64,000 nt of DNA from Bacteroidales bacterium (GCA_011620595.1 WOYX01000040.1:1-64000); one strand, 5' to 3'. Positions 5,636-64,000 are shown, numbered from the stretch's first letter. Program-made: numbers and translations. Notes: generated from the letters alone by a model not told the origin.

Positions 5636-5766
5636 TACCCGCGCAGAATGATTTTCATGTTGACATCAAAGCCCCTTAGTCCGGCCATCCGGTCAATCCG
5701 GCAGATTTGACAGAACCTGATCAACCATGTTGGAAGCGGCATTTTTTTCATAAAAAACAAAAGGAG

Positions 5767-48117: not shown

Positions 48118-48193
48118 CCTGCGCTGATACACTGAATTGCGCAGGCGGATACTGAGGCACAGACGGACAACCTGTCCGTCTGTGCCTCAGTAT
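48118..48193. terminator. Two hairpins, one a perfect 21-bp inverted repeat
   Basis: The first hairpin pairs CCTGCGC (48118-48124) with GCGCAGG (48139-48145). The second is a perfect 21-bp inverted repeat, 48149-48169 against 48173-48193, with a 3-base ACC loop; the arm begins ATACTGAGGC and ends ACGGACA. No T-run follows. It may end the S9 peptidase transcript from either strand or protect its 3' end. Confidence 0.75.
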
Positions 48194-48475: not shown

Positions 48476-51400
48476 ATGAAAAAAATTATCTTTTTTCTCT
48501 TGTTGTTCCTTATCTGGCTTGACCCTCTTTTGGCGCAGGTTAACCTGAAAGGGACAATAGTTGATGATCAGAACCTGCCCCTCCCGGGAGTGTCAGTCCG
48601 TGTAAAGAACACATTCAGGGGCACCATGACCGACACAGACGGCACTTACACACTTAGTGCGTTGCCAACGGATACCCTTGTTTTTTCGATGGTAGGGATG
48701 ATCACACAGGAGATCGTGCCAGGGAACCGTACCGTGATTAATATTCAGATGGAAACTGAGACTACAATCATGGATGAGGTAGTAGTAATAGGTTACGGAA
48801 CGGTAAGAAAGAGTGACCTTACCGGGTCTGTGAGCTCAGTCAAAACTGAGGACCTGCTGAAGGTAACATCACTGAATCCTGAGCAGGGGCTTCAGGGGAA
48901 GGTAACAGGCGTTCAGGTGATAAGCACCTCGGGTGCTCCCGGAGCAGGAGCGGCAGTCAGGGTACGAGGAGTAGGCACCTTCAATAACTCATCCCCGATA
49001 TTTGTTGTTGACGGGGTGATACTTGACGATATCTCCTTCCTCAACTCTTCGGATATTGCATCCATGGAGGTGCTGAAAGATGCTTCTGCCACTGCCATTT
49101 ACGGATCAAGGGGAGCCAACGGCGTCATCATCATCACAACAAAAACAGGCACGATGGGCCAGGAGAAGGCAAGTTTCAACGTCAATTCTGAGTTCGGAAT
49201 ACAGCACCTGGCAAAGAAAATCGATCTTCTCAGCGGCAGGGAGTTTGCTATTATTTCCAACGAGATAGTTGCCGGGTCCTACAATAACGTTGATCTTGTT
49301 CCCAATACCGACTGGCAGGACCTGGTGTTCACCACGGCACAGATTCACAATCACCAGATATCGGTCACGGGAGCCACGAAGCTGACGCAATACTACGTGG
49401 GAATCGGGGCCTTCATCCAGGATGGTATAATTGACAAATCGAACTACAGCCGTATCACGCTGAAACTTAACAATACGTATAATTTAACGCCATTTCTCAA
49501 ACTTGGCAACAACCTGACCATCGCACCCTACACCCAGCAGAACGCGCCTAATGTAACATACTCGGTATACCGTGCGCAGCCGGTGCTTGAGCCCTATTAC
49601 GATGACGGCTCTTTTGCCGTGGTCTATAATGTTGGCAACCCGTTGGCTCAGCTTGCATATTCAAACGATTTCAGAAAAGGGATAAGAGGTGTCGGTAATA
49701 TTTTTGCGGAGGCCTCATTTCTAGATTCTTTTACACTGAGGACAAGTTTCGGGATAGATGCTTCATACAACAAATCGACCAGTTTTTCTCCGGCTTACAC
49801 TGTCTATAACCCTGATGGCACTGCCTCCCAGCAGCAAAATATCCTCAGCGATTTGTACAAGGGTACCTCTGATAACCTCAACTGGCTTTGGGAAAACACC
49901 CTGAGTTACCGGAAAACATTCATGGATATTCATTCTCTTGACCTGGTAGCTGGCTATACCATGCAGGAATCGACTTCTGAGTATCTGGGCATTCCGGGAG
50001 AGAATATACTGCGTGACGGACAGGATTTCTGGTATATCAGTCCTTCTTACATATATGACCCCGCCAATAATGTCAACACGATCCAGTCGATATCCAACGG
50101 AGTTGATGCGGGATTATACTATTCCATGATCTCTTATATCTTCCGGGCCAATTATTCACTTGACAATAAATATATTGCTACTGTCACTTTTCGTCGGGAC
50201 GGCTCCTCGAAATTTGCAAAGGAGAACAGGTTTTCAAACTTTCCGTCGTTTGCCCTTGGATGGAATATAGGGAACGAGCAATTCATGAAATCGGTTGATG
50301 CAGTATCAAAGCTCAAGGTCAGAGCCAGCTGGGGAATAATTGGCAATGAGAAGATAAGTTACTATGACCGTTATGCGAGGGTGCAGTCGTCTATCATAGC
50401 CGTGCTGGGCAATCCGGATGCTCCGATTCCTGCTGCAACTTACGGCAAGAGCGGCAACCCGGACCTGAAATGGGAGAGCACCACTCAAACAGATATAGGT
50501 GTTGAGGTTGGCTTTTTAGCAAACAAGCTCATGGGCGAATTTGACTTTTACAATCGCGTTACCAATGACATACTGGTTGAACTTTCAACTCCGGGTCACC
50601 TGGGCAACGGGCAGGGTCAGAAGGTGCGTTACAATGCGGCATCCGTTCTGAACAGGGGATTTGAGTTCAACCTGAACTGGAGGGAGAAGAGAGGCGATTT
50701 CACCTACTCTGTAGGCCTCCTGGGTTCGACCATTCACAATGAGGTGCTTGAGATAGGAGGCACCAGCGGTGTTGACTCCACGCTTATTGGTGGTTACCTG
50801 GGTGACGGAAGGCCTGTAACGTTGAGCCGCGTCGGACTGCCTATCGGTGCATTTTACGGGTACAAGACAGATGGCATTTTCCAGGATGAAGGTGAGCTTG
50901 ATGCTTATCCCCATTCTGCCCAGGCCGGACCTGGTGATCTCAGGTTTGTTGATGTGACTCATGACGGTATCCTTGACGGGCGTGACAGGACCTATATCGG
51001 TTCACCCATTCCAAAATTCATTTTTGGTTTCAACGGTAGCATAGAATATAAGGGAATTGACTTTGCCCTTGACTTCCAGGGTCAGACAGGGAATAAGATC
51101 TTCAACGGGAAGGAGGTGGTAAGGCCTGATCCCTACAACTTCGAGAAACATGTCTTCAGCCGATGGACCGGTCCGGGCACAAGCAACAGTGAACCCCGGC
51201 CCTCTTTTGGAGGGTACAATTTCACACCTTCAGATAGGTTTATCCAGGACGGTTCATTCATAAGGCTGAGAAGTGTCTCCCTTGGTTACACACTGCCGGC
51301 CCGTTTATCACAGAAGGCCTTCATGCAACAGCTCAGGGTATATGTCAAGGGATCAAACCTGTTCACTCTTACCAGGTTTACCGGTTATACGCCGGAAATC

Positions 51401-51490
51401 GGGAGCTATGATGTTCTGTCGAACGGAATAGACTATGGCGCCTATCCCATCACTTCCGTCTACTCAGTTGGTGTTAACCTGCAATTCTAA
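48476..51490 (+). CDS. SusC/RagA-type TonB-dependent outer-membrane transporter
   Basis: A 1004-residue importer. After a signal peptide (FFLLLFLIWLDPLLAQ) come a carboxypeptidase-like regulatory domain (about 20-105, LKGTIVDDQNLPLPGVSVRV), a TonB box (MDEVVVIGYGT), a plug domain (about 115-235, GSRGANGVIIITTKTG) and a 22-stranded barrel to the aromatic end VYSVGVNLQF. The start at 48476 is chosen because the longer frame lacks a signal peptide. SusD follows 5 bases later. Together they form the lipoprotein-capped pore that imports oligosaccharides; given the two GH144 genes downstream, the substrate is probably beta-1,2-glucan fragments. Confidence 0.95.
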   Translation: MKKIIFFLLLFLIWLDPLLAQVNLKGTIVDDQNLPLPGVSVRVKNTFRGTMTDTDGTYTLSALPTDTLVFSMVGMITQEIVPGNRTVINIQMETETTIMDEVVVIGYGTVRKSDLTGSVSSVKTEDLLKVTSLNPEQGLQGKVTGVQVISTSGAPGAGAAVRVRGVGTFNNSSPIFVVDGVILDDISFLNSSDIASMEVLKDASATAIYGSRGANGVIIITTKTGTMGQEKASFNVNSEFGIQHLAKKIDLLSGREFAIISNEIVAGSYNNVDLVPNTDWQDLVFTTAQIHNHQISVTGATKLTQYYVGIGAFIQDGIIDKSNYSRITLKLNNTYNLTPFLKLGNNLTIAPYTQQNAPNVTYSVYRAQPVLEPYYDDGSFAVVYNVGNPLAQLAYSNDFRKGIRGVGNIFAEASFLDSFTLRTSFGIDASYNKSTSFSPAYTVYNPDGTASQQQNILSDLYKGTSDNLNWLWENTLSYRKTFMDIHSLDLVAGYTMQESTSEYLGIPGENILRDGQDFWYISPSYIYDPANNVNTIQSISNGVDAGLYYSMISYIFRANYSLDNKYIATVTFRRDGSSKFAKENRFSNFPSFALGWNIGNEQFMKSVDAVSKLKVRASWGIIGNEKISYYDRYARVQSSIIAVLGNPDAPIPAATYGKSGNPDLKWESTTQTDIGVEVGFLANKLMGEFDFYNRVTNDILVELSTPGHLGNGQGQKVRYNAASVLNRGFEFNLNWREKRGDFTYSVGLLGSTIHNEVLEIGGTSGVDSTLIGGYLGDGRPVTLSRVGLPIGAFYGYKTDGIFQDEGELDAYPHSAQAGPGDLRFVDVTHDGILDGRDRTYIGSPIPKFIFGFNGSIEYKGIDFALDFQGQTGNKIFNGKEVVRPDPYNFEKHVFSRWTGPGTSNSEPRPSFGGYNFTPSDRFIQDGSFIRLRSVSLGYTLPARLSQKAFMQQLRVYVKGSNLFTLTRFTGYTPEIGSYDVLSNGIDYGAYPITSVYSVGVNLQF

Positions 51491-51495
51491 GAAAG

Positions 51496-52977
51496 ATGAA
51501 AACAAAGATTTCCATATCAATCATCCTGATGGCATTCCTTCTGATCACGGCGGGATGCGAAGACTTTCTCCAGAAGGATCCGCAGGGAGAGCTGACCCAG
51601 GAGGCGTTCCCTGTAACTGCATCGGACGCTTTGCTTGCAACCAATGCCGTATATTCAACCATTCGTAACTGGGCTTATCATTCAGGTGGTTATCCGATAA
51701 TGGATATCATGTCAGATGATGCCCACAAGGGCAGTAACCCCAATGACCAGCTACCCACTATCGGCCCGTATGATAAATTCACCCATACTACAACCCAGGA
51801 TGGGCTAGACCGCTGGTGGAGCTCATTATACGAAGGTATCAAGAGGGCCAACGTGGTCATAGAAATGGTACCGTCAATTAATATGAGCACTGATCTTCGG
51901 AACCGTTGTATTGCTGAGGCCAGTTTCCTGAGGGGACTCTATTATTTTGATCTTGTACGAGCTTTCGGAGGAGTGCCCAAAGTTACCATAACGACACCTC
52001 CTACAAAGGTTCCACGCTCAACGGCAGGGGAAATATATGATCTTATAATTTCTGATCTTGAATATGCAATTACGAACCTCCCGGAGAAAAGCGCCTACGG
52101 TCCCGATGATGCAGGCCGGGCAACGAAGGGGGCTGCCAAATCGCTTCTGGCAAAGGTTTATCTGTTCAGGAAGGATTTTATCAATGCCGAAAAGTATGCA
52201 CTGGAAGTCATTATATCAGATGAGTATGACCTCGAGCCTGTTTTTGCCGATGCTAACGGCAAATTGGGTGAGCACGGAGTGGAATCGGTATTTGAGGTAG
52301 GAGCCATGGAAGTCGACGGGGCCGGAGGAAACCAGTATGCCAACACGCAGGGCGTCAGAGGTTCGCCTAACAGGGGATGGGGATTCAACAGGCCTTCCCT
52401 TGATCTTCGCTACTCCTTTGAGACAGGTGACCCACGTCTCGATGCCACTATAATTGACCTGGGCGAAACACTGGACGGGATACTTATCCTGGGCGACGGT
52501 ACAACGCCCGATGAGACACTTGACGGTGATCAAAATGTAATTGAGGTGGAGTGTTACAATCAGAAGATATGGTACCCTGGCAACAACACTACCACCCAGT
52601 GGGGTCATAACAGGAGGCTGATCCGTTACGCCGACGTTCTGCTTATGGCGGCAGAAGCGCTGAATGAGAATGATGACCCTGATGGCGCCCTGCTCTACCT
52701 CAATGAGGTAAGAAGACGTGCAAGACAGGGCAACAACAGCATCCTCCCTGACATTACAGAGACAAGCAAGGGTCCTCTAAGAGACATTATCATTGAAGAA
52801 CGGAGGCATGAACTTGCTCTTGAGGGACACAGATTCTGGGACCTTGTCAGAACCGACAGGGCAGCAACAGTGCTGGGTCCTCTTGGCTTTGTCACAGGGA
52901 AACACGAGTTATTCCCGATTCCTCAGAATGAAATTGATATATCCCAGGGATCTCTTGAGCAGAATCCCAACTGGTAA
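51496..52977 (+). CDS. SusD/RagB-type nutrient-binding lipoprotein
   Basis: A 493-residue surface lipoprotein (lipobox LLITAGC, Cys at about 20) with the TPR-like helical SusD fold. Hallmarks are CIAEASFLRGLYYFDLVRAF near residue 137 and EERRHELALEGHRFWDLVRT near residue 435. It caps the SusC barrel and holds the incoming glycan. Several aromatic residues that could stack on glucose are present but the binding site cannot be defined from sequence. It is the second gene of the glycan locus, 5 bases after susC. Confidence 0.95.
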   Translation: MKTKISISIILMAFLLITAGCEDFLQKDPQGELTQEAFPVTASDALLATNAVYSTIRNWAYHSGGYPIMDIMSDDAHKGSNPNDQLPTIGPYDKFTHTTTQDGLDRWWSSLYEGIKRANVVIEMVPSINMSTDLRNRCIAEASFLRGLYYFDLVRAFGGVPKVTITTPPTKVPRSTAGEIYDLIISDLEYAITNLPEKSAYGPDDAGRATKGAAKSLLAKVYLFRKDFINAEKYALEVIISDEYDLEPVFADANGKLGEHGVESVFEVGAMEVDGAGGNQYANTQGVRGSPNRGWGFNRPSLDLRYSFETGDPRLDATIIDLGETLDGILILGDGTTPDETLDGDQNVIEVECYNQKIWYPGNNTTTQWGHNRRLIRYADVLLMAAEALNENDDPDGALLYLNEVRRRARQGNNSILPDITETSKGPLRDIIIEERRHELALEGHRFWDLVRTDRAATVLGPLGFVTGKHELFPIPQNEIDISQGSLEQNPNW

Positions 52978-53024
52978 GTTATTAAAGAGTGCTTATGAAT
53001 GTTAAATTAAAAATCGAAAATTTT

Positions 53025-54251
53025 ATGAAAAGAAAACATGTTTTTTCAAGTATGCTTTTTGTTGTTGTGGCATTTTCACTAATGCTCACCAGCTGCAAAA
53101 AGGATCCGGAGCCACTGGCCCTTGTGAGCCTTATGGCCGGGTCGATTGACCTCAATGGAGCCACCTCACCGAATAATGTTCCGGTGAACCCCACTATCGT
53201 GGCTACATTTAATGTTGAAGTGGATCCCGCAACGGCTACCACAACGAACATCACCATGGTTCAGGATTATGATGATGCCGCAATTGACCTGACAGTTACA
53301 ACCTCGGGCAAGACTATCACGATCGTTCCGCAGGCCAGCCTGGGTACGGGTGCTCTCTACCAGCTCAGTTTCGGGGCGGGGCTGAAGTCTCTCGACGCTC
53401 TTGCCATCACCCCGTTCCAGAGAACCTTCACCACTGAAGGCACATTTGCTCCTGCCGGTGCAATAGCACACTTCACCTTTGAAGACAACCCCAATGATAT
53501 CATCGGGTCGTGGGATCCGGCAGCTGCAGATATCATTGACATAACCTACACAGCATCAAGGAAGGCCGCCGCCGGCAAGGCTGCCACTTTCAACGGCACC
53601 ACAAGCCTTATTGAGATCCCCAACGGTGACCTCATTATGAATACCACCAGCTTCACGGTCGCATTCTGGATGAAGACCAACTCAACCGACAAGACCAACG
53701 GGCATTTTGTCATGGGTCTTGCCGGATGGAACGGCTTCCAGTATGAAGTGTTCGGTGGCTATGACGGATCAAAATTCGCTTTCCAGTACGAGCATGCAAC
53801 AGGAACAGCGGCTGAGGACATGTGGTTCCCGGCGCTTGCTGACCTTGGCTGGCAGGGCTGGACCTATGCAAAGAGCCTGACAGTTGACGAGATGACTGCG
53901 CTGCTGAAGGATGCCTGGATTAATGTCATTTACACCTTCAATGGTCCGACAAAAGTTGGAACCCTGTACTTCAACGGACAGAAGATGAAGAGTTTCGACT
54001 TCAACCTGTGGCCTGACGAAGATGCCAAGAGAAGCGTTACCGGGCTGAAGTATGCAGGTCTTCCTGCAGGCAACCACCTGGCACTCGGCTTCATCCAGGA
54101 AAGGAACAACAGAACCATCAGTGATGAATGGGCTGATTATGCTCTTCCGGAGAACAATCACTTCAAGGGACAGCTTGATGACATCCGTTTCTGGCACAAG
54201 GCACTTACGGAAACCGAAATCGGTCTTATGTACAACTCGGAGAAACCGTAA
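53025..54251 (+). CDS. Surface glycan-binding lipoprotein candidate (Ig-like plus LamG-like)
   Basis: A 408-residue lipoprotein (lipobox LMLTSC, Cys at about 24). A bacterial Ig-like (Big_5 type) domain (about 45-135, VNPTIVATFNVEVDPATATT) is followed by a LamG/concanavalin-like domain (about 150-405, IAHFTFEDNPNDIIGSWD, FNGTTSLIEIPN, RTISDEWADYALPEN, GQLDDIRFWHKALTETEI). There is no catalytic motif. Its place directly after susD is where SusE/SusF-type surface glycan-binding proteins sit, so a beta-1,2-glucan-binding role is inferred. The frame extends 12 codons upstream; the ATG at 53025 gives a proper lipoprotein signal. Confidence 0.85.
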   Translation: MKRKHVFSSMLFVVVAFSLMLTSCKKDPEPLALVSLMAGSIDLNGATSPNNVPVNPTIVATFNVEVDPATATTTNITMVQDYDDAAIDLTVTTSGKTITIVPQASLGTGALYQLSFGAGLKSLDALAITPFQRTFTTEGTFAPAGAIAHFTFEDNPNDIIGSWDPAAADIIDITYTASRKAAAGKAATFNGTTSLIEIPNGDLIMNTTSFTVAFWMKTNSTDKTNGHFVMGLAGWNGFQYEVFGGYDGSKFAFQYEHATGTAAEDMWFPALADLGWQGWTYAKSLTVDEMTALLKDAWINVIYTFNGPTKVGTLYFNGQKMKSFDFNLWPDEDAKRSVTGLKYAGLPAGNHLALGFIQERNNRTISDEWADYALPENNHFKGQLDDIRFWHKALTETEIGLMYNSEKP

Positions 54252-54277
54252 CAGTTAGTTTATTGGTTTGAACTTGC

Positions 54278-54315
54278 GGAGGGTCCCGGCAAGAGCCCGG
54301 ACCCTCCTTTTTTTC
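54278..54315 (+). terminator. Strong terminator inside the glycan locus
   Basis: A perfect 9-bp stem (GGAGGGTCC / GGACCCTCC) with a 12-base apical loop that may pair further is followed by seven T residues. It separates the susC-susD-lipoprotein genes from the enzyme genes that follow on the same strand. Confidence 0.85.
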
Positions 54316-54334
54316 TTATATTAATTAAGTCAAC

Positions 54335-56302
54335 ATGTGGAACAGGTTAATGGGAGCGTGGCTGGTGGTCCTTGCGGTGCTTGCCCTGTCTTGCGAGAAA
54401 AAGGAGCCGGATGGTGGCAGTACAGGTACTGTCCAGCTTATAAGGGCAAAAGTAGGTACTGTCTATCTTGACCTTCAGAGCCCCGTCGTCGACATTCCTG
54501 TTGATAAAAATGCTGTCATCGAGTTCAGCAATGTACTGGATACGGCTTCGGCCCGGAAAAGCATTCTTCTGAAAAAGAACGGAATAACATTGATCACCGG
54601 TGCCTGGTCCTTTATTGACGGCAACCGTACAGTGGCTTTCACCCCAGCCCAGAACCTGGAGCACTATGCAGATTACACTCTGGAGATCACCTCATCGCTC
54701 AAAGGCGTCAACGGCGAGACCTTTCCGGGTGTCATCTATAACTTCAAAACCGTCAATGGCAGGATGGTTATCAGTTCCATTACCATTAACGGCCAGCCAT
54801 TTATGCCTCCTGCCCTGCCTAAAAATGTCAGCAGAACAGCGACAGAAATCATTGTCACTTTTTCCGAAGCCCTTAATCCTTCTGATTTTCAGTCTTACTT
54901 CAGTTTCCAGGTGCCGGCGGCTTATGCTCTCTCCGACGGAAACAGGAGAGTGACGGTTACAGCCACCGCAACTCTTGACTATTACAGGAGATATTCGTTT
55001 ATTGTAGCAAGCAGCCTCAAGGGAGTGAATGGCTTCACTTTCGACGGTTTTTCAAACTCCTTCATTACGGACCTGGATCCGACCCCGAAATTTCCGCTGA
55101 TTTCTGATGATGAGCTTCTTGAGCTTGTACAGCAGCAGACATTCAGGTATTTCTATGACTTTGCGCATCCTTTGAGCGGCCTGGCGCGTGAGCGCAACAG
55201 CTCGGGCGACGTTGTTACCACGGGTGGCTCAGGCTTTGGGGTGATGGCCCTTATCGTTGCTATGGAGAGGGGTTTCATCACCAGGGGAGACGGGCTTGCC
55301 CATATGGATAAGATCCTTGATTTTCTGGAGACCTGTGACCGTTATCACGGCGTATGGCCTCACTGGCTCAACGGATCGACAGGCAGGACGATACCCTTCA
55401 GTGAGAAGGATGACGGGGGTGACCTTGTAGAAACATCATTCCTCATCCAGGGACTTATCACCTTCCGTCAGTATCTTGACCCGGGAGTGACAGCTGAGCA
55501 GCTCCTCATCAACCGTATAAACGCACTTTGGCAGGCAGTTGAGTACGACTTCTTCACGCAGGGACTGAATGCCCTGTACTGGCACTGGTCGCCCAACTAT
55601 GGGTTCAACATGAACATGATGCTGCGCGGCTACAATGAAACCCTGATCTGTTATGTTCTCGGGGCTGGATCACCCACGCACACCATTAGCAGGGATACTT
55701 ACAGATACGGTTATATGAATGACGGCGCCATACTTAACGGCAGTACTTACTACGGGATTACCCTGCCCATGGGTTGGCCATACGGAGGGCCGCTCTTCTT
55801 CACCCATTATTCCTTCCTCGGGCTCGATCCCCGCAATCTTGAAGACAGCTATGTGAATTACTGGGAACAAAACAATGCTCATTCACTTATTAACTGGAAG
55901 CACTGCGAGATAAATCCCTCCGGTTATGTGAGCTACGGCAGTGACTGCTGGGGGCTGACCGCCAGCGACAACCAGGCTGGGTACGGTGCACATTCGCCCA
56001 CAAATGACCTGGGAGTGATCACCCCAACGGCTGCGGCCTCATCGCTTCCTTATACTCCTGAGCCGTCGATGAATGCCATCAAACACTTCTATTATATTCT
56101 GGGTGACAGGCTATGGGGCGAATACGGCTTTTACGATGCATTCAATGCAACCGCCGGGTGGTGGGGCACATCCTATCTTGCCATAGATCAGGGACCGATA
56201 GTCTGTATGATCGAGAATTACCGCACAGGACTTTTATGGGATCTCTTCATGTCGGCCCCGGAGGTTAGGACCGGTCTTGATAAACTTGGATTTACATACT
56301 GA
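54335..56302 (+). CDS. GH144-family enzyme (endo-beta-1,2-glucanase type) with two Ig-like domains
   Basis: A 655-residue lipoprotein (lipobox VLALSC, Cys at about 20). Two Ig-like domains (about 35-140 and 145-245; note the repeated phrase SSLKGVNG) precede a GH144-type (alpha/alpha)6 domain (about 255-655), with QQQTFRYFYDFAHP, GFGVMALIVAMERGFI, FLETCDRYHGVWPHWL, DGGDLVETSFLIQGL, SDCWGLTASDN and TSYLAIDQGPIVCMIENYR. GH144 enzymes cut beta-1,2-glucan by inversion, releasing sophorose and other short sugars. Being surface- or periplasm-anchored next to susCD suggests first-step cutting. The exact mode (endo or exo) is not visible. Confidence 0.88.
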   Translation: MWNRLMGAWLVVLAVLALSCEKKEPDGGSTGTVQLIRAKVGTVYLDLQSPVVDIPVDKNAVIEFSNVLDTASARKSILLKKNGITLITGAWSFIDGNRTVAFTPAQNLEHYADYTLEITSSLKGVNGETFPGVIYNFKTVNGRMVISSITINGQPFMPPALPKNVSRTATEIIVTFSEALNPSDFQSYFSFQVPAAYALSDGNRRVTVTATATLDYYRRYSFIVASSLKGVNGFTFDGFSNSFITDLDPTPKFPLISDDELLELVQQQTFRYFYDFAHPLSGLARERNSSGDVVTTGGSGFGVMALIVAMERGFITRGDGLAHMDKILDFLETCDRYHGVWPHWLNGSTGRTIPFSEKDDGGDLVETSFLIQGLITFRQYLDPGVTAEQLLINRINALWQAVEYDFFTQGLNALYWHWSPNYGFNMNMMLRGYNETLICYVLGAGSPTHTISRDTYRYGYMNDGAILNGSTYYGITLPMGWPYGGPLFFTHYSFLGLDPRNLEDSYVNYWEQNNAHSLINWKHCEINPSGYVSYGSDCWGLTASDNQAGYGAHSPTNDLGVITPTAAASSLPYTPEPSMNAIKHFYYILGDRLWGEYGFYDAFNATAGWWGTSYLAIDQGPIVCMIENYRTGLLWDLFMSAPEVRTGLDKLGFTY

Positions 56303-56308
56303 GAATAG

Positions 56309-57688
56309 ATGAGAACGATATACCTAATCCTCCTGACGGCTCTTGTGCTTGCCTCGTGCAGCCGGCAGACGCAGATCACCTTCGTTTCAAAGGGGAAGGT
56401 TGATTATCAGCTTTCACCAGATGAGACAGCCATGCTTGACTCAATCCAGCAGAAGACCTTTCAGTTCTTTCTGCATGAGCATCATCCTGAATGGGGCATT
56501 GTCAAGGACCGTGCGGCAGACTGGGCACCAGCCAGCATCGCCTCAACGGGGTTCGGCCTGGTGTCTTTTGCCGTAGGAGCGGAGAGAAACTGGATTACCC
56601 GTGAGGAGGCAGCCATGATAACCCTGAACACTCTTGACTTCTTCCTCAACTCAGTACAGAGTGCCGATACTGCAGCAATGGGGTACAAAGGCTTTTACTA
56701 CCATTTCCTGCGCATGAGCAGTGGCACCAGGGAATGGAAATGTGAGTTGTCTTCTGTTGATACGGGTCTCCTTATGATGGGAATAATCTTTGCCCGTAAC
56801 TATTACAGCCTTGACAATGATACTGAACGCCGGATCCGTTCACAGGCTGCTACTATTCTGAACCGCATAGAGTGGAATTTCATGATGATGCCTGATACGG
56901 GCAGATATGCCCGGCAGATCTCCATGGGCTGGCATCCTGAGCAGGGGCTTCACCATATGGGCTGGAGCGGGTATAATGAAGCGCTGTTTCTCTATATACT
57001 TGCCGCAGGAAGCGGAATGGAGAATGCTGAAGAGAGTTATGACTCATGGTTAAGCTCCTATAAATGGCATACGCCTTACGATGGCCTTTCTCATGTGGCT
57101 TTTCCGCCACTCTTCGGGCACCAGTTCTCACAGGCATTCATTGACTTTCGAGGTATAGCTGACTCATACATGAAGGAGAAGGGGATTGACTATTTCGAAA
57201 ATTCACGCCGTGCAACATACGTCCAGCGGCAGTATGCCATTGATAATCCTCACGGGTGGGTCGGGTATGATTCGCTCTGCTGGGGTATAACAGCCAGTGA
57301 CGGGCCGACGGATATCTATAATTTTGACGGCAGGGAGTTCTATGGCTACGCCGGGAGAGGCACCAGCGGTCCTGACTATAACTATTTTGATGACGGAACC
57401 ATCGCTCCTTACGGGCCACTGTCATCATTGCCCTTTGCCCCGGAGATCGTTCTGCCTGCCATAAAATCAATAAATGAAAAATATGGCGACCGGCTGTGGG
57501 GCAAATACGGATATTACGACTCCTTTAACCCTACCGTCAATTGGTTCAATGATGATTACATAGGCATTGACCAGGGTCCGATGCTTATCATGATAGAGAA
57601 TTTCAGGACAGGGCTGGTTTGGGATAACGTGATGAAGGATCCTGTTATCAGGGAAGGCCTCAACAGGCTGGGATTCTCATATCTGTAA
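56309..57688 (+). CDS. GH144-family enzyme, single-domain lipoprotein
   Basis: A 459-residue lipoprotein (lipobox LVLASC, Cys at about 17) that is almost only the GH144 domain: IQQKTFQFFLHEHHPEWGIV, STGFGLVSFAVGAERNWI, CELSSVDTGLLMMG, WSGYNEALFLYILA, CWGITASDGP and DYIGIDQGPMLIMIENFRTG. It starts 6 bases after the previous GH144 gene. The two paralogues differ clearly in the loop between EN-type motifs and in the N-terminal domains, so they probably differ in product or location, for example surface versus periplasm. Substrate beta-1,2-glucan is inferred from the family. Confidence 0.9.
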   Translation: MRTIYLILLTALVLASCSRQTQITFVSKGKVDYQLSPDETAMLDSIQQKTFQFFLHEHHPEWGIVKDRAADWAPASIASTGFGLVSFAVGAERNWITREEAAMITLNTLDFFLNSVQSADTAAMGYKGFYYHFLRMSSGTREWKCELSSVDTGLLMMGIIFARNYYSLDNDTERRIRSQAATILNRIEWNFMMMPDTGRYARQISMGWHPEQGLHHMGWSGYNEALFLYILAAGSGMENAEESYDSWLSSYKWHTPYDGLSHVAFPPLFGHQFSQAFIDFRGIADSYMKEKGIDYFENSRRATYVQRQYAIDNPHGWVGYDSLCWGITASDGPTDIYNFDGREFYGYAGRGTSGPDYNYFDDGTIAPYGPLSSLPFAPEIVLPAIKSINEKYGDRLWGKYGYYDSFNPTVNWFNDDYIGIDQGPMLIMIENFRTGLVWDNVMKDPVIREGLNRLGFSYL

Positions 57689-57733
57689 TTTTTTTGCAAG
57701 CCGCGACAAAACACTGCAAATGCCGTTACCACG

Positions 57734-60700
57734 ATGAAGTCCCACCTCATCAGAATACCAGCCATCTTCCTGTTGCCGGTTCTTGCAGTTGCCAGCGGCA
57801 ACGCCCAGGTAACAATCCTGGATGAGTTTGAAAACGCAAACGGATGGTCTTACAATCTCTCGGAAGGGGTTACAATGAACCACTCCACTGAAAAGGGAGT
57901 TGCCGGCAATGCCATCCGAATCGACTATGATTTCACAAAAGGGTCCGGTTACGGGGGAATTCAGAAGCTTTTTCCGTTGGAGCTCCCTGAGAACTATGAG
58001 TTTACCTTCTGGCTGAAGGCCGAGTCGCCTTCAAACAACTTTGAGATTAAGTTTATTGACAGCACAGGGAATAATGTATGGTGGGTCAATAACCGGAACT
58101 ATTCCTTTCCCGGGGAGTGGAAAAAGATCCGCATAAAGAAACGTCATATTGAGTTTGCCTGGGGACCTGCGGAAGGCCGGGAACCTGATCGTTTTGACCG
58201 GATAGAGTTTACCGTCGCATCATTTGTCGGTGGCAGAGGCACGCTATGGATAGATGACCTCAGGTTTGAGCCCCTGGCGCCTGAAAGGCATTCATGGCCG
58301 GCGCCGTCACTGTCAGCTTCATCATCAGCCAGGAGGCATTCACCTGATCTTATGGGTGACAGCTCCGACAAAACCTTCTGGCAAAGCCGTAAAGCGGGGA
58401 GAGAGAACATAACCGTTGACTTTATTGTGAAAAGGGAGTTCGGAGGTGTTCAGATCAGGTGGCTGGAAGGTCATCAGGCCGGGAGCTTTGAGATTTATCT
58501 GTCCGATGACGGCAGGAGATGGGAAAAGGCATACTCTGTCTCTTCCAACAGGGGAGAGGTGAGCTTCGTGAGACTTCCCGAAGCAGAGGCAAGGTATCTA
58601 AGGCTGGAAATGGCAGAACCCTCAGCTGACGGCACATTCAGCATTACAGAAATCGAATTTCCGGATGTGGGCAGCACAATAACGCCCAATGATTTCCTGA
58701 TATACTGTGCAAAGAATTCACCCCCGGGAAACTATCCCGAATACTTCTCGGAACGGGCATCATACTGGACTGTAACGGGTGTCAATAATGACACAAAAGA
58801 GGCTCTGATCAACGAATCGGGGATGGTTGAGGTTGACAAATCGCTCTTTTCCATTGAGCCGATGCTGAGAGTAGGCGATTCGCTGGTAAACTGGAGCAAT
58901 ACCCATCCGGGGCAGTCGATGGTTTTTTCCGGGGCTGCCGGTGAGACTGACTTTGTTCCGTCAGTGACATGGCAGCACGGCGGGCTGAAGTTTGTCACGG
59001 GAGTCTCATCAGGCGGCACTGCCAATGTAAATTCCATGCTCTACATCGGTTATTCATTTGAAAATCTCTCGAACCGGCCTGTTGATTTTGAGTTTTACCT
59101 GCTGGTACGCCCGTTCCAGGTTAATCCCTGGTACCAGTTCCTCAACACAGTAGGTGGAAGTGGAAAGATTAATACCATAAGTGAGGAGGCCGGGGGCCGG
59201 ATCGCAGTTGATGACAGGGTCATCCTTTTGACCAGGGCATATGATTCTTTCGGTTCAGCCGTATTCGATGAGGGCAATCTCGTGGACATGCTGCGTGCCG
59301 GAAGAATGCCTCCCTTCAAAACCGCAACAGACAGGGCGGGGATGGCAAACGGTGTGATGAAATATTCAATGCACCTGGAGCCCGGTGAAGGGGAGGAGTT
59401 CTTTGCAGCAGTCCAGTATCATGGCAGAGAGTCGATTGAAGGGAATATGGATGTAAAAGATATGGCCGGCGCCTTCTACAGTGCGGCCGGTTTCTGGAGG
59501 ACGAAGACGGATCACATACGGTTTAATCTGCCCCATTCAGCTGACAGGATCATTGATACCTGGAGATCAAATCTTGTCTACATCCTGATCAACAGGGACA
59601 ATGTTGGCATCCAGCCAGGGTCACGCTCATATGAACGGAGCTGGATACGTGACGGGGCCCTGACATCTTCAGCACTGCTCAAATCGGGTATTGTTGAAGA
59701 GGTCAGAGATTTTACAGACTGGTATGCGTCACACCAGTTTGAGAACGGCAAGGTGCCATGCGTGGTTGATTCAAGGGGTCCTGACCCGGTGCCGGAGCAC
59801 GACAGCCACGGTGAACTGATCTATCTGATCCGTGAGTATTTCAATTTCACCGGTGACACCGTTTTTCTGAGATCAAAAAACGAAAACGTGCTGAGAGCAG
59901 TTGACTATATTGAGTCTCTTGTTGCGCAACGATCAACAGATCACTTCCGCTATGGGAATGACAGTATCCGTGCCTGTTACGGGCTGGTGCCCGAGTCGAT
60001 CAGTCATGAAGGCTACTCGGCAAAACCGATGCACTCATACTGGGATGACTTCTTTACAATGAAAGGACTGAAGGATGCAGCTGAAATACAGAAGATTCTG
60101 GGCGAGAGTGAAAATTACCGGAGGATAGCCGGCATCAGGGATACTTTCCGTGTAAATCTGTACAACTCCCTCGATCTGGCCATGAAGGTCAGGAAGATTG
60201 ATTACATCCCGGGCTGTGTGGAGCTGGGTGACTTCGATGCTACATCAACCACCATCGCACTCACCCCGTGCAATGAACTGCATAACCTTCCTGTTCCGCA
60301 GGTTTACAATACTTTTAACAAGTATTACGCTTTTTTTCTCGACAGGAGGGATGGCAGGAGAGACTGGGTCAATTACACTCCTTATGAAAACCGCCTGATA
60401 GGATCATTCATCATGCTTGACCAGCCTGAAATGGCACACGAGCTGATTGAGTATTTTCTGAATGATCAGCGTCCGCCAGGCTGGAACCAATGGGCCGAGG
60501 TGGTCTGGAAGGATTACCGTCACCCGGGATTTATAGGAGACATGCCCCATACATGGTGCGGAAGCGACTTTATCAATGCCATCAGGTCTATGTTCGTTTA
60601 CGAAAACGAATATGATCATACACTTATTCTTGCCTCTGCCCTGTACCAGGACTGGATCGATGCTCCCGGGGGGATGTCGGTTGAAAATCTGCCTACCTAT

Positions 60701-60919
60701 TATGGTGAGATATCCTACTCGATACAGAAGGAGGGCAACAGTTACCGTTTTTCCATTACCGGCGATATCGATCTGCCTGAAGGGGGTATCAGAATAAGGA
60801 ATTTCAACGGGCGAAAAATGCCGTTGGCAATTACAGTCAACGGTAAGGAGTCAACGGATTTCAATGAAAGGGAGATTGCGGTCAGGGAGGTGCCCGCTAA
60901 TATTGTGATATATTATTAA
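57734..60919 (+). CDS. Multidomain glucoamylase-like (alpha/alpha)6 enzyme, family not recognised
   Basis: A 1061-residue exported protein. After a signal peptide (FLLPVLAVASGNAQ, to about 24) come a CBM11/CIA30-like beta-sandwich (about 25-185), a discoidin/F5-8C domain (about 190-315), another beta-sandwich (about 320-600), an (alpha/alpha)6-type domain (about 610-960) and a beta tail. The motif SYERSWIRDGALTSS (W637, R639, D640) resembles the WxRD substrate-site motif of GH15 and relatives; other conserved-looking sites are PEHDSHGELIYLIREY and WNQWAEVVWKDYRHP. The layout (beta-sandwich plus helical barrel) fits clans containing GH15, GH65 and GH94, but I cannot assign it. Being secreted, it is unlikely to be a phosphorylase. 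Between GH144 and importer genes, it probably acts on beta-1,2-glucan or its decorations. Confidence 0.75.
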   Translation: MKSHLIRIPAIFLLPVLAVASGNAQVTILDEFENANGWSYNLSEGVTMNHSTEKGVAGNAIRIDYDFTKGSGYGGIQKLFPLELPENYEFTFWLKAESPSNNFEIKFIDSTGNNVWWVNNRNYSFPGEWKKIRIKKRHIEFAWGPAEGREPDRFDRIEFTVASFVGGRGTLWIDDLRFEPLAPERHSWPAPSLSASSSARRHSPDLMGDSSDKTFWQSRKAGRENITVDFIVKREFGGVQIRWLEGHQAGSFEIYLSDDGRRWEKAYSVSSNRGEVSFVRLPEAEARYLRLEMAEPSADGTFSITEIEFPDVGSTITPNDFLIYCAKNSPPGNYPEYFSERASYWTVTGVNNDTKEALINESGMVEVDKSLFSIEPMLRVGDSLVNWSNTHPGQSMVFSGAAGETDFVPSVTWQHGGLKFVTGVSSGGTANVNSMLYIGYSFENLSNRPVDFEFYLLVRPFQVNPWYQFLNTVGGSGKINTISEEAGGRIAVDDRVILLTRAYDSFGSAVFDEGNLVDMLRAGRMPPFKTATDRAGMANGVMKYSMHLEPGEGEEFFAAVQYHGRESIEGNMDVKDMAGAFYSAAGFWRTKTDHIRFNLPHSADRIIDTWRSNLVYILINRDNVGIQPGSRSYERSWIRDGALTSSALLKSGIVEEVRDFTDWYASHQFENGKVPCVVDSRGPDPVPEHDSHGELIYLIREYFNFTGDTVFLRSKNENVLRAVDYIESLVAQRSTDHFRYGNDSIRACYGLVPESISHEGYSAKPMHSYWDDFFTMKGLKDAAEIQKILGESENYRRIAGIRDTFRVNLYNSLDLAMKVRKIDYIPGCVELGDFDATSTTIALTPCNELHNLPVPQVYNTFNKYYAFFLDRRDGRRDWVNYTPYENRLIGSFIMLDQPEMAHELIEYFLNDQRPPGWNQWAEVVWKDYRHPGFIGDMPHTWCGSDFINAIRSMFVYENEYDHTLILASALYQDWIDAPGGMSVENLPTYYGEISYSIQKEGNSYRFSITGDIDLPEGGIRIRNFNGRKMPLAITVNGKESTDFNEREIAVREVPANIVIYY

Positions 60920-60941
60920 CGGCTGAAAAATAAATGCTTTC

Positions 60942-63026
60942 ATGAAAGGGAGAGACAAGAGCACAATGAAGGCCGCCGGGCACAATAATCATATTTCTTT
61001 TGGTCAGCTTGCCGCCTATTCCGCGGGAGGCATTATACCCATTGCCCTGTTTAACATAGCCGGTCAGCTGGTTGGCCTGATGGGCAATATAAGCCTGGGG
61101 CTGAGCGCATTCTGGCTGGGGTTCATCATGATTATCCCCAGGCTATGGGATGCCTTCTCCGATCCTATTGTAGGCCATCTCTCTGACAACACCCGGAGCC
61201 GGCTGGGACGCAGGAGGCCCTATCTCCTTATAGGCGGCATAGCTGTAGCGGTTTTCTTTGTTGTCATGTGGTGGATCCCCAAGGGAGAGGCGGTGCATGC
61301 ATGGTTCCCCACTGATGCCGGTTTTCAGCGGTTCCAGCTTGTATACATACTGTTTGGCCTGCTCCTGTTCTTCACTGCCACCACCGTCTTCGAGATACCT
61401 CACGGTGCCCTGGGCATGGAGATGACAACCGATCCTCATGAACGAACCCGTCTTTTCAGCGGCAAAAGTTTTGTAGGCAACCTCTTCGCCATGAGCACCC
61501 CCTGGCTCTTTGCCCTGGCCAATACCGAGGCCTTCAGGGGGCCCGGAGGAAATGAGGCTGACGGAATGAGATATGTATCCCTTCTCATAGCGGCCGTGAT
61601 TATTCCACTCTCCTTCTGGTGGACCGCCAAACTGCGGGAGCCCGGGTTTGTGAAGGTCGCAAAACAGGAGAAGACACATTTCTGGAATGACATGAAGATA
61701 GTGGGCACCAACAAGAATTTCATCTACCTGGTGATGACAATTTTTACACTGGCTATGGGCTTTAACTTTGTCAACCTGCTCGGATCTTACATACCTATCT
61801 TTTATGTCTTCGGTGGCGATAAAATTGCAGGCGCCAGGCTGCTGGGCATTAACGGGACAATCTGGGCAATCACCGGCGTGCTGGCCGTCTTTCCGTTGAA
61901 CTGGATAAGCCCGAAGCTGGGGAAACGGAATACACTCATAGTTGCCATGGTGCTGATGTGCGTCGCACAGCTTTCAAAGATCGTCTGTTATAACCCGGAG
62001 CATCCGTACCTGATCATTATCCCGACAATAATGCTGTCTGCAGGAATGCTTTTCTTCTTTACACTCGGGTCATCGATGGTAGGAGATATTTGTGATGAGG
62101 ACGAACTGAAGACCGGGCACAGGTCGGAGGGGAGCTATTATTCCATCTACTGGTGGTTCATAAAGCTGGGTACCGCCTTTGCCAGTTTTGTGGCAGGAAT
62201 CCTGATAACACTGACCCTTTTCGATCAGACACAGGTAACAAAAGTTGACAGTCTTCAGGGAAGCGTGCGTGATATGCAGAGCAAGATCCGGGACTGGAGA
62301 GGGTATGATGGTGCAGGTGCAGGCCCGGAATTGATCAGAACTGCCAGGTCGCAGACATCAGAGGCGTTGAAGGAGTCCAAAGACTACCTGCTTTATCTTG
62401 AAAATGAGGTGGCAAAAAAGCCGGAGAAGAAAAGAACCGGGTACGCTGAGAATGACGCCCGCAGAAGGAATGTATTTATGAACGCTGCCACTGCCTCAAA
62501 GTCGATGATCAGTAAACTGGAGTCAGTGGATGCAGCCCTGGCTCAGGCATCACCGGCACATGCTGATTCACTCATCAGCGCGGCAATTCCTCTCATTATG
62601 CAGTCGAAACTGCTGAAGGCGAGAATCTATTCATTCGATCTGCTGGCACACCTTCAGGCCAGGACAAAACAGCATGAGAAAAGCAGGGAGCATACGGCCC
62701 GGCTGACTCAGAATATATCCATGATCAATGACAGGATCAACGCTCTGAGCCCCGGTTCGGCGCCGGATATGCTTTACAGTGAGCTGGCTGCGATTGAAAA
62801 GGACATCGAGCCCCTGAAAAAGCAGTCGCCCTATACCCTGCTGATGATGAGGGTCGTAGAGATTGGACTGCCACTGCTCTTAAGTCTCCTGGCCCTCTTC
62901 TTTGCTGTGCGGTATACGCTGACTGAAAAAAGGACATTTGAGATCAAAGAGCTGCTCAGGCAGAGGAACATGGGAAATAATGACGGCACCGGACAGCCGG
63001 GAAGAGAGCAGGTTATACAAAATTAA
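60942..63026 (+). CDS. GPH-type MFS sugar transporter with a large insertion
   Basis: A 694-residue transporter of the glycoside-pentoside-hexuronide (GPH) group of the MFS superfamily. Features are IIPRLWDAFSDPIVGHLSDN, the RSRLGRRRPYLLIGG loop, FEIPHGALGMEMTTDPHERT, and MVGDICDEDELKTGHRSEG. Family members usually have about 450-500 residues; here about 200 extra residues (about 427-627), rich in charged and helix-forming residues, lie between helix 11 and helix 12 (IGLPLLLSLLALFFAV). With both termini inside, this loop would face the periplasm. The likely cargo is the short beta-1,2-glucan oligosaccharides made by the GH144 enzymes. It lies 22 bases after the 1061-residue enzyme gene. Confidence 0.88.
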   Translation: MKGRDKSTMKAAGHNNHISFGQLAAYSAGGIIPIALFNIAGQLVGLMGNISLGLSAFWLGFIMIIPRLWDAFSDPIVGHLSDNTRSRLGRRRPYLLIGGIAVAVFFVVMWWIPKGEAVHAWFPTDAGFQRFQLVYILFGLLLFFTATTVFEIPHGALGMEMTTDPHERTRLFSGKSFVGNLFAMSTPWLFALANTEAFRGPGGNEADGMRYVSLLIAAVIIPLSFWWTAKLREPGFVKVAKQEKTHFWNDMKIVGTNKNFIYLVMTIFTLAMGFNFVNLLGSYIPIFYVFGGDKIAGARLLGINGTIWAITGVLAVFPLNWISPKLGKRNTLIVAMVLMCVAQLSKIVCYNPEHPYLIIIPTIMLSAGMLFFFTLGSSMVGDICDEDELKTGHRSEGSYYSIYWWFIKLGTAFASFVAGILITLTLFDQTQVTKVDSLQGSVRDMQSKIRDWRGYDGAGAGPELIRTARSQTSEALKESKDYLLYLENEVAKKPEKKRTGYAENDARRRNVFMNAATASKSMISKLESVDAALAQASPAHADSLISAAIPLIMQSKLLKARIYSFDLLAHLQARTKQHEKSREHTARLTQNISMINDRINALSPGSAPDMLYSELAAIEKDIEPLKKQSPYTLLMMRVVEIGLPLLLSLLALFFAVRYTLTEKRTFEIKELLRQRNMGNNDGTGQPGREQVIQN

Positions 63027-63036
63027 GTTGACGGAT

Positions 63037-64000
63037 ATGGTACTTGGGATTGAGGGACGTAATTTCATTCAGGATGACAAAAAGGTATTTCTCAATTCAG
63101 GAGAGATACATTATTTCAGGATCAGGCGCGGACTGTGGAACAGGCACCTTGATGAGGCCGTGAAGGCCGGCCTCGCGTCAGTAAGCACATATATTCCCTG
63201 GGCCTGGCATGAGGAAGAGGAGGGGCTGTTCGACTTTGACGGCTCAACATGCCCTGAGAAAGACCTTGAAGGATGGCTCCGCAGTTGCCATGAACATGGA
63301 CTGACATGCATTGTAAAACCGGGTCCCTTTATCCTTGCCGAATTCAGGGGAGCCGGCCTGCCTGACTGGTTCATTGAGAAGTACGGAGAGGAGGTCCGGA
63401 TGAGGACTCGCAGTGGCAGCAGGGTCATGAGCGACGGGGTCAGCCTTTTCAATGAAAAGTACATTGAGAAGGTGGGGTTGTGGTATGACAGGATAATGCC
63501 TCTGATACGGCGGAATGAAGCCTCCTCGGGCGGACCAGTAATAATGATGCAGATATGCAATGAGATAGGAGTATTCTCATGGCTTGCACATCAGGCGGAC
63601 TATGGTAACGCCGTGAGAGAAAGGTTCATCTCGTGGCTGAAGGAGAGGTACGGAAACATCAGTGAGCTTAATAAACTCTGGGGGACAGACTACGCCGGCT
63701 TTGACCGTCTTGAACTCCCCCCTGACGGTCTGACACCGTATAGCTCAGCCGGAGACAGGGGACGCGACAATGAATGGCACCTGTTCTGGAGGAGATACTA
63801 CGGTGACTACCTGAGAAAACTGACCGTAATGGCCAGGGAGAGAGGCGTTACCGTTCCTTTCTACCACAATCTTCCCGGATGGATCTATGGCAACGGTTAC
63901 GAGTTCCCGGTCAATAACACCATGTATGAGGATCTCTACAATGATAAGAGTGAACTCTTCTTCGGAGTAGATCATATTCCCGAATTCGTTTCATACCGCA
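63037..64000 (+). CDS. GH35-type beta-glycosidase, N-terminal part (runs off the right edge)
   Basis: The visible 321 residues match GH35: LNSGEIHYFRIRRGLWNRHL, AGLASVSTYIPWAWHEEEEG, IVKPGPFILAEF and the acid/base motif MMQICNEIG, the counterpart of QxENE in known beta-galactosidases. No signal peptide is present, so it should act in the cytoplasm on sugars brought in by the MFS carrier 10 bases upstream. Most GH35 enzymes are beta-galactosidases, but I recall a GH35 1,2-beta-oligoglucan glucosyltransferase from Ignavibacterium album, which would suit this locus. The nucleophile half of the domain lies partly beyond the window. Confidence 0.85.
   Translation, partial: MVLGIEGRNFIQDDKKVFLNSGEIHYFRIRRGLWNRHLDEAVKAGLASVSTYIPWAWHEEEEGLFDFDGSTCPEKDLEGWLRSCHEHGLTCIVKPGPFILAEFRGAGLPDWFIEKYGEEVRMRTRSGSRVMSDGVSLFNEKYIEKVGLWYDRIMPLIRRNEASSGGPVIMMQICNEIGVFSWLAHQADYGNAVRERFISWLKERYGNISELNKLWGTDYAGFDRLELPPDGLTPYSSAGDRGRDNEWHLFWRRYYGDYLRKLTVMARERGVTVPFYHNLPGWIYGNGYEFPVNNTMYEDLYNDKSELFFGVDHIPEFVSYR

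What the first reader, a model, noticed from the sequence alone, without database searches (positions are those of the whole stretch)
48476..64000. Beta-1,2-glucan utilization locus with an unusual enzyme set
Two GH144 lipoproteins directly follow susC/susD and a LamG lipoprotein, and are followed by a large unassigned enzyme, a GPH importer and a GH35 enzyme. In better-known cases beta-1,2-glucan fragments are finished by GH3 beta-glucosidases or GH94 phosphorylases; neither is visible here. The set suggests another way to finish the pathway, through a secreted glucoamylase-like enzyme and a cytoplasmic GH35. Seen: gene order and motifs. Known: GH144 cuts beta-1,2-glucan. Inferred: the substrate of the whole locus.
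Basis: partly seen in the sequence, partly recalled or inferred. Interest (0 to 1): 0.75.

Follow-up and report, generated by a model that had tools for sequence, protein, structure and literature searches.

The report
Beta-1,2-glucan locus with unassigned enzyme
This is a bacterial gene cluster for eating beta-1,2-glucan; the 'missing' finishing enzyme (a GH94 phosphorylase) lies about 1.5 kb beyond the window's edge, but one large secreted enzyme in the cluster belongs to an uncharacterised family that always travels with beta-1,2-glucanases.

Summary
In detail: susC, susD, a LamG lipoprotein, two GH144 lipoproteins, a 1061-aa secreted protein, a GPH importer and a GH35 enzyme lie on one strand in operon-like order. 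The headline inference fails. [quoted passage not shown] The GH35 protein matches the beta-1,2-glucosyltransferase IaSGT of Ignavibacterium album, with all seven conserved subsite -1/catalytic residues. An I. album cluster with two GH144, GH35 and GH94 is already published, so the pathway is of a known kind. Two points are new. The gene order recurs in dozens of environmental Bacteroidota loci. The 1061-aa protein belongs to a family whose catalytic part has no Pfam, NCBIfam or PDB sequence assignment: supersandwich plus (alpha/alpha)6 fold, remotely GH15-like, candidate catalytic acids conserved. GH144 was present in all 79 of its loci with enough upstream sequence. It also occurs beside GH3, GH1 or GH94 genes, so it probably does not merely replace a beta-glucosidase. 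Its substrate is unknown; an alpha-linked or branched part of natural beta-1,2-glucans is one testable guess.

The parts
48476..51490 (+). SusC-like TonB-dependent outer-membrane transporter
   Evidence: TIGR04056 849 bits
51496..52977 (+). SusD-like surface lipoprotein
   Evidence: PF07980, PF14322; lipobox by reading
53025..54251 (+). LamG/Big_5 lipoprotein, probable surface glycan-binding protein
   Evidence: PF13385, PF13205; homologue in 19 of 37 long related loci
54335..56302 (+). GH144a lipoprotein, beta-1,2-glucanase with two N-terminal Big_5 domains
   Evidence: PF10091 240 bits; CpSGL E 1e-147 and conserved KDxGGDLVETSF and GYNE motifs
56309..57688 (+). GH144b lipoprotein, XcSGL-like beta-1,2-glucanase
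   Evidence: PF10091 244 bits; XcSGL 8XUL E 4e-109
57734..60919 (+). 1061-aa secreted enzyme of unassigned family: CBM11-like region, CBM32 domain, supersandwich, (alpha/alpha)6 domain
   Evidence: signal peptide by reading
60942..63026 (+). GPH-family sugar:cation symporter
   Evidence: PF13347 220 bits; TIGR00792 167 bits, below its cut-off of 231
62980..64000 (+). GH35, SGT-type beta-1,2-glucosyltransferase (cut by the window end; continues to contig position 65478). An alternative start at about 63037 would avoid the overlap with the symporter gene. The next genes on the contig, outside the window, are GH94 SOGP (about 65465-68809) and a probable SusR-like regulator (68905-71718)
   Evidence: IaSGT 7VKW E 9e-154, all seven conserved residues kept; SOGP and regulator

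Best explanation
The locus is a polysaccharide utilisation locus for beta-1,2-glucan. The SusCD pair and the LamG lipoprotein bind the glucan at the cell surface; the GH144a lipoprotein cuts it there, and GH144b (surface or periplasm) shortens it further to sophoro-oligosaccharides. The 1061-aa secreted enzyme processes those oligosaccharides or a linkage that GH144 cannot cut; I think it most likely an inverting, exo-acting hydrolase remotely related to GH15 and not merely a replacement for a beta-glucosidase. The GPH symporter imports the products. In the cytoplasm GH94 SOGP phosphorolyses oligosaccharides of three or more units, giving glucose 1-phosphate and finally sophorose, and the GH35 SGT-type enzyme moves a glucosyl unit from sophorose to another glucoside. 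A SusR-like regulator downstream probably controls the set. Gene identities and order are shown; locations, order of steps, substrate of the whole locus and the role of the 1061-aa enzyme are inferred.
For: Two GH144 proteins close to assayed beta-1,2-glucanases (PMC12102758). SOGP with all SOGP domains overlapping the GH35 gene. GH35 keeps every conserved IaSGT residue. The same set (two GH144, GH35, GH94) is published in Ignavibacterium album (PMC8861115). The order GH144-1061aa-GPH-GH35-SOGP recurs: in 37 related loci of 22 kb or more GH144 is in 37, GPH 34, GH35 34, SOGP 33. All 20 strong carrier genomes in a sample of 395 also carry GH144, against 116 of 375 others, P about 2e-10. Remote GH15 relation by profile: 81%, E 1.3e-5, against under 1% for two controls.
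Against: No induction or activity data exist. GH144 linkage alone does not prove the substrate: a GH35 next to GH144 in Bacteroides xylanisolvens is a beta-1,2-galactosidase and does not act on beta-1,2-gluco-oligosaccharides (PMC11739564). IaSGT is not a hydrolase, so how sophorose becomes glucose here is not explained unless a GH3 elsewhere in the genome helps (five GH3 genes). The GH15 link of the 1061-aa enzyme is weak, and several catalytic loops in its model have pLDDT below 50. GH144a could be exo- instead of endo-acting.
Confidence: 0.85

Rival explanations
1. One reading: the pathway lacks both GH3 and GH94 and is finished only by a secreted glucoamylase-like enzyme and a cytoplasmic GH35.
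For: No GH3 is seen in the locus, and no GH94 lies within 48476-64000.
Against: A GH94 SOGP gene follows directly on the same contig and overlaps the GH35 gene, and it is in 33 of 37 long related loci.
Confidence: 0.02
2. The 1061-aa enzyme is simply a secreted beta-1,2-glucosidase that replaces GH3.
For: GH144 loci of non-carrier genomes have GH3 in 15 of 20 and never this enzyme; the window locus and its nearest relatives show no GH3. Its fold neighbours include beta-acting GH94 and GH116 enzymes.
Against: 16 of 37 long carrier loci also hold a GH3, and a distant carrier holds GH94 and GH1 beside it. Its closest sequence relation is to GH15, which acts on alpha bonds (GH15 specificity from general knowledge).
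Confidence: 0.3
3. The locus targets another glycan, for example a beta-1,2-galactan or a plant sophoroside, and GH144 has a changed specificity.
For: In Bacteroides xylanisolvens a GH35 linked to GH144 is a beta-1,2-galactosidase (PMC11739564).
Against: Here GH35 is of the glucosyltransferase group and GH94 is SOGP: several glucose-specific beta-1,2 families in one gene run.
Confidence: 0.06

Closest known systems
Ignavibacterium album beta-1,2-glucan cluster (IALB_1177, 1179, 1185, 1187; PMC8861115)
   Same: Two GH144 proteins, a GH35 SGT and a GH94 protein in one cluster; related Ignavibacteria loci also hold the 1061-aa enzyme (L063, L081, L094).
   Different: Here import is by SusCD and a GPH symporter instead of an ABC transporter, and GH94 is a stand-alone SOGP; the I. 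album GH94 protein is described as a homologue of a C-terminal SOGP domain of a cyclic glucan synthase.
Bacteroidota GH144 plus GH3 loci (such as the Bacteroides thetaiotaomicron cluster with BT_3567)
   Same: SusCD and GH144.
   Different: They use a GH3 beta-glucosidase; the 20 non-carrier GH144 loci sampled had no 1061-aa enzyme, GPH, GH35 or SOGP of this type.
GH15 (glucoamylase, glucodextranase) as relative of the 1061-aa enzyme
   Same: Supersandwich plus (alpha/alpha)6 barrel, W-x-R-D motif, a Glu aligned near the GH15 base, GDMPHTW against GNFPQAF motif.
   Different: Below every family cut-off; extra CBM11-like and CBM32 regions; strict beta-1,2-glucan gene context.

Membership tests
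GH144 (both lipoproteins) | Match to PF10091 above cut-off over the domain | tested here: met
   240 and 244 bits against a cut-off of 27
GH144 (both lipoproteins) | Clan-conserved catalytic Glu (CpSGL E211/XcSGL E239 position) and acidic residue at CpSGL E142 position | tested here: met
   GYNE motif in both; VET in GH144a, VDT in GH144b as in XcSGL. The 8XUL chain has Q at the Glu position, which I read as the mutant used for the complex
GH144 (both lipoproteins) | Hydrolysis of beta-1,2-glucan | not testable with these tools
   needs assay
GH35 SGT (EC 2.4.1.391) | Residues Y52, E102, N175, E176, N275, E343, Y378 of IaSGT | tested here: met
   all identical
GH35 SGT (EC 2.4.1.391) | Glucosyl transfer from sophorose without hydrolysis | not testable with these tools
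   needs assay
GH94 SOGP (gene outside the window) | SOGP_N, SOGP_2nd, GH94 and SOGP_4th domains | tested here: met
   all above cut-off; 5H3Z E 6e-171
GH15 (1061-aa enzyme) | Match to PF00723 or a GH15 NCBIfam model above cut-off | tested here: not met
   PF00723 E 0.2, and 0.02 at best in relatives; TIGR01577 20-43 bits against a cut-off of 821
GH15 (1061-aa enzyme) | GH15 catalytic acid and base positions | tested here: inconclusive
   E922 aligns near the base in hhalign; the acid region is not aligned there and is assigned by motif only (E754 or E759)
GH94 (1061-aa enzyme) | Family-level sequence match | tested here: not met
   No Pfam GH94 match; hhalign to SOGP 22%, E 9e-4; signal peptide present by reading
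Polysaccharide utilisation locus | SusC/SusD pair next to glycan enzymes and a regulator | tested here: met
   the regulator assignment is weak (GerE below cut-off)

The most novel reading that the evidence does not exclude
The 1061-aa protein founds a new glycoside hydrolase family that is a fixed part of one type of beta-1,2-glucan utilisation, acting on a linkage that GH144 and SOGP cannot handle, such as the alpha-1,6 bond of cyclic glucans of the Xanthomonas or Ralstonia type.
Probability: 0.3. Interest if true: 0.7.

Novelty: new variant of a known kind. Interest (0 to 1): 0.5.

Why it matters
Beta-1,2-glucans are symbiosis and virulence glycans, and few enzymes that break them are known. 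Known enzymes explain this locus except for one. That one is a large secreted protein with conserved candidate catalytic residues, no family assignment in the libraries searched, and strict linkage to beta-1,2-glucanases across Bacteroidota and Ignavibacteria. It is a ready target for assay and could explain how natural, substituted or cyclised glucans are fully degraded.

Tried and rejected
Missing GH94: rejected, the gene is past the window edge. GH35 as beta-galactosidase: rejected by best PDB matches and residues. XcSGL-like protein as one of the new families GH192-194: checked in PMC12102758; XcSGL is GH144. The 1061-aa enzyme as simple GH3 replacement: weakened by co-occurrence (the GH3 count for carrier loci wrongly included GH35 and is not used). 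Single-sequence structure prediction failed (pLDDT 31) and was replaced by an alignment-based one. A PDB search with Bacteroidota GH15 proteins gave nothing at 1e-10, so GH15 catalytic residues were not mapped onto a solved structure. No paper found in the literature searches made describes the 1061-aa family. A first whole-class search found the protein in 1 of 295 genomes; that sample held few carriers. One search was a malformed query of mine; one search was a wrongly formatted first attempt at this report.

Full report
Observation. The window is the first 64,000 bases of contig C56, which is 88,282 bases long. From 48476 onwards the genes lie on the + strand with small gaps or overlaps: SusC, SusD, a LamG/Big_5 lipoprotein, two GH144 lipoproteins, a 1061-aa secreted protein, a GPH symporter and a GH35 protein. 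Family models confirm these. Both GH144 proteins match PF10091 at about 240 bits; the first aligns with the endo-beta-1,2-glucanase CpSGL and the second is closest to XcSGL. XcSGL (XCC2207) is an assayed GH144 beta-1,2-glucanase (PMC12102758).

What the window cut off. Beyond position 64000 the GH35 gene continues to about C56:65478. The next gene (about C56:65465-68809, 1115 aa) overlaps it and carries SOGP_N, SOGP_2nd, GH94 and SOGP_4th domains, with LpSOGP (5H3Z) as best solved relative, E 6e-171. A 937-aa protein follows with a LuxR-type helix-turn-helix at its C-terminus, which I read as a SusR-like regulator; this rests on a GerE match below cut-off and on reading the sequence. GH3 is not seen in the locus, though five GH3 matches lie elsewhere in the genome.

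The GH35 enzyme. Its best solved relative is IaSGT, the beta-1,2-glucosyltransferase of Ignavibacterium album (E 9e-154), and Y52, E102, N175, E176, N275, E343 and Y378 of IaSGT are all conserved. The IaSGT paper names these as the conserved subsite -1 and catalytic residues, reports sophorose as donor and no hydrolytic activity, and describes the source cluster as holding two GH144 proteins, GH35 and a GH94 protein (PMC8861115). The pathway logic of this locus is therefore largely published. SOGP acts on sophoro-oligosaccharides of three units or more (PMC11842490), which would leave sophorose for the GH35 enzyme.

Conservation. A scan of GTDB genomes with the 1061-aa protein gave 77 loci. 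In the 37 that are 22 kb or longer, GH144 is in all, GPH and GH35 in 34, SOGP in 33, SusC in 26, LamG in 19. A profile search of 395 genomes of the phylum found 20 carriers with E below 1e-200; one further weak fragment (G466) is not counted. All 20 also carry GH144, against 116 of 375 non-carriers, P about 2e-10; this treats genomes as independent, which related species are not. In the 79 loci with at least 2 kb upstream, GH144 was always in the locus, and within 400 bp upstream in 67. Twenty GH144 loci from non-carrier genomes had GH3 in 15 and none of the GPH, GH35 or SOGP of this type. Two organisations thus exist: GH144 with GH3, and GH144 with the 1061-aa enzyme, GPH, GH35 and SOGP; 16 of 37 of the latter also hold a GH3. 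In more distant carriers the enzyme sits near GH144 together with an ABC importer, GH94 and GH1, or GH2.

The 1061-aa enzyme. No Pfam or NCBIfam model covers its catalytic part above cut-off, and no PDB sequence matches that part; only a CBM11-like and a CBM32 region match. An alignment-based AlphaFold2 model (59 sequences, mean pLDDT 83, pTM 0.82) has strands of a supersandwich followed by an (alpha/alpha)6-type helical domain. Foldseek gives GH94, dextran dextrinase, alpha-rhamnosidase, glucodextranase, GH116, kojibiose phosphorylase and amylo-1,6-glucosidase structures, mostly at 9-13% identity. Several catalytic loops have pLDDT below 50, so their geometry should not be trusted. Profile-profile comparison supports a remote GH15 relation: 81%, E 1.3e-5, against 22% for SOGP and under 1% for two controls, GH15 with SOGP and this family with GH144. 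The WIRDG motif aligns with GH15 W-x-RD, GDMPHTW with GNFPQAF, and E922 falls near the GH15 base; E754 or E759 is the likely acid by motif only. R639, D640, E759 and E922 are invariant in 78 sequences, E754 in 77. It begins with a signal peptide by reading, so a phosphorylase role is unlikely, and I favour an inverting hydrolase.

What it might do. A simple beta-glucosidase role is possible but does not explain why it coexists with GH3 or GH1. A linkage that GH144, SOGP and beta-glucosidases cannot cut would explain both the strict linkage and the coexistence; natural candidates are the alpha-1,6 bond of cyclised glucans and branches on osmoregulated periplasmic glucans (these glucans are described in PMC11842490). 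This is inference, given as a hypothesis with probability about 0.3.

Verdict. The locus is real and its substrate is most likely beta-1,2-glucan. The enzyme set is not unusual in the way stated, since the GH94 step is present and the GH35 step is known. The interest lies in the uncharacterised enzyme family, a candidate new GH family. Absence from CAZy itself could not be checked here.

Noticed in passing
window 60942-63026: The GPH symporter is 694 aa long; the MFS_2 match ends at residue 433 and about 220 mostly hydrophilic residues precede a last hydrophobic segment. Matches of about the same length recur in related loci.
   Followed up: partly
window 48149-48193: A perfect hairpin of 21 base pairs lies between the S9 peptidase gene and susC (z-score -11.4); possibly a terminator.
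   Followed up: partly
window 3854-8010: A GH15 protein (one of the proteins used as GH15 yardstick) is followed by a trehalose-6-phosphate synthase/phosphatase-like fusion.
   Followed up: no
L026, L027, L033, L035, L038, L039: About 2.3 kb is inserted between GH144a and GH144b in these loci, and a GH3 match is present in each; I infer that the insert is the GH3 gene.
   Followed up: partly
L133:11782-16304: In a distant carrier the 1061-aa family is followed by a GH94 and a GH1 gene and preceded by an ABC importer and two GH144 genes.
   Followed up: partly
G000 contig C17:3627-4910 (L218): A second, different GH94 enzyme (544 bits) is encoded elsewhere in the genome.
   Followed up: no
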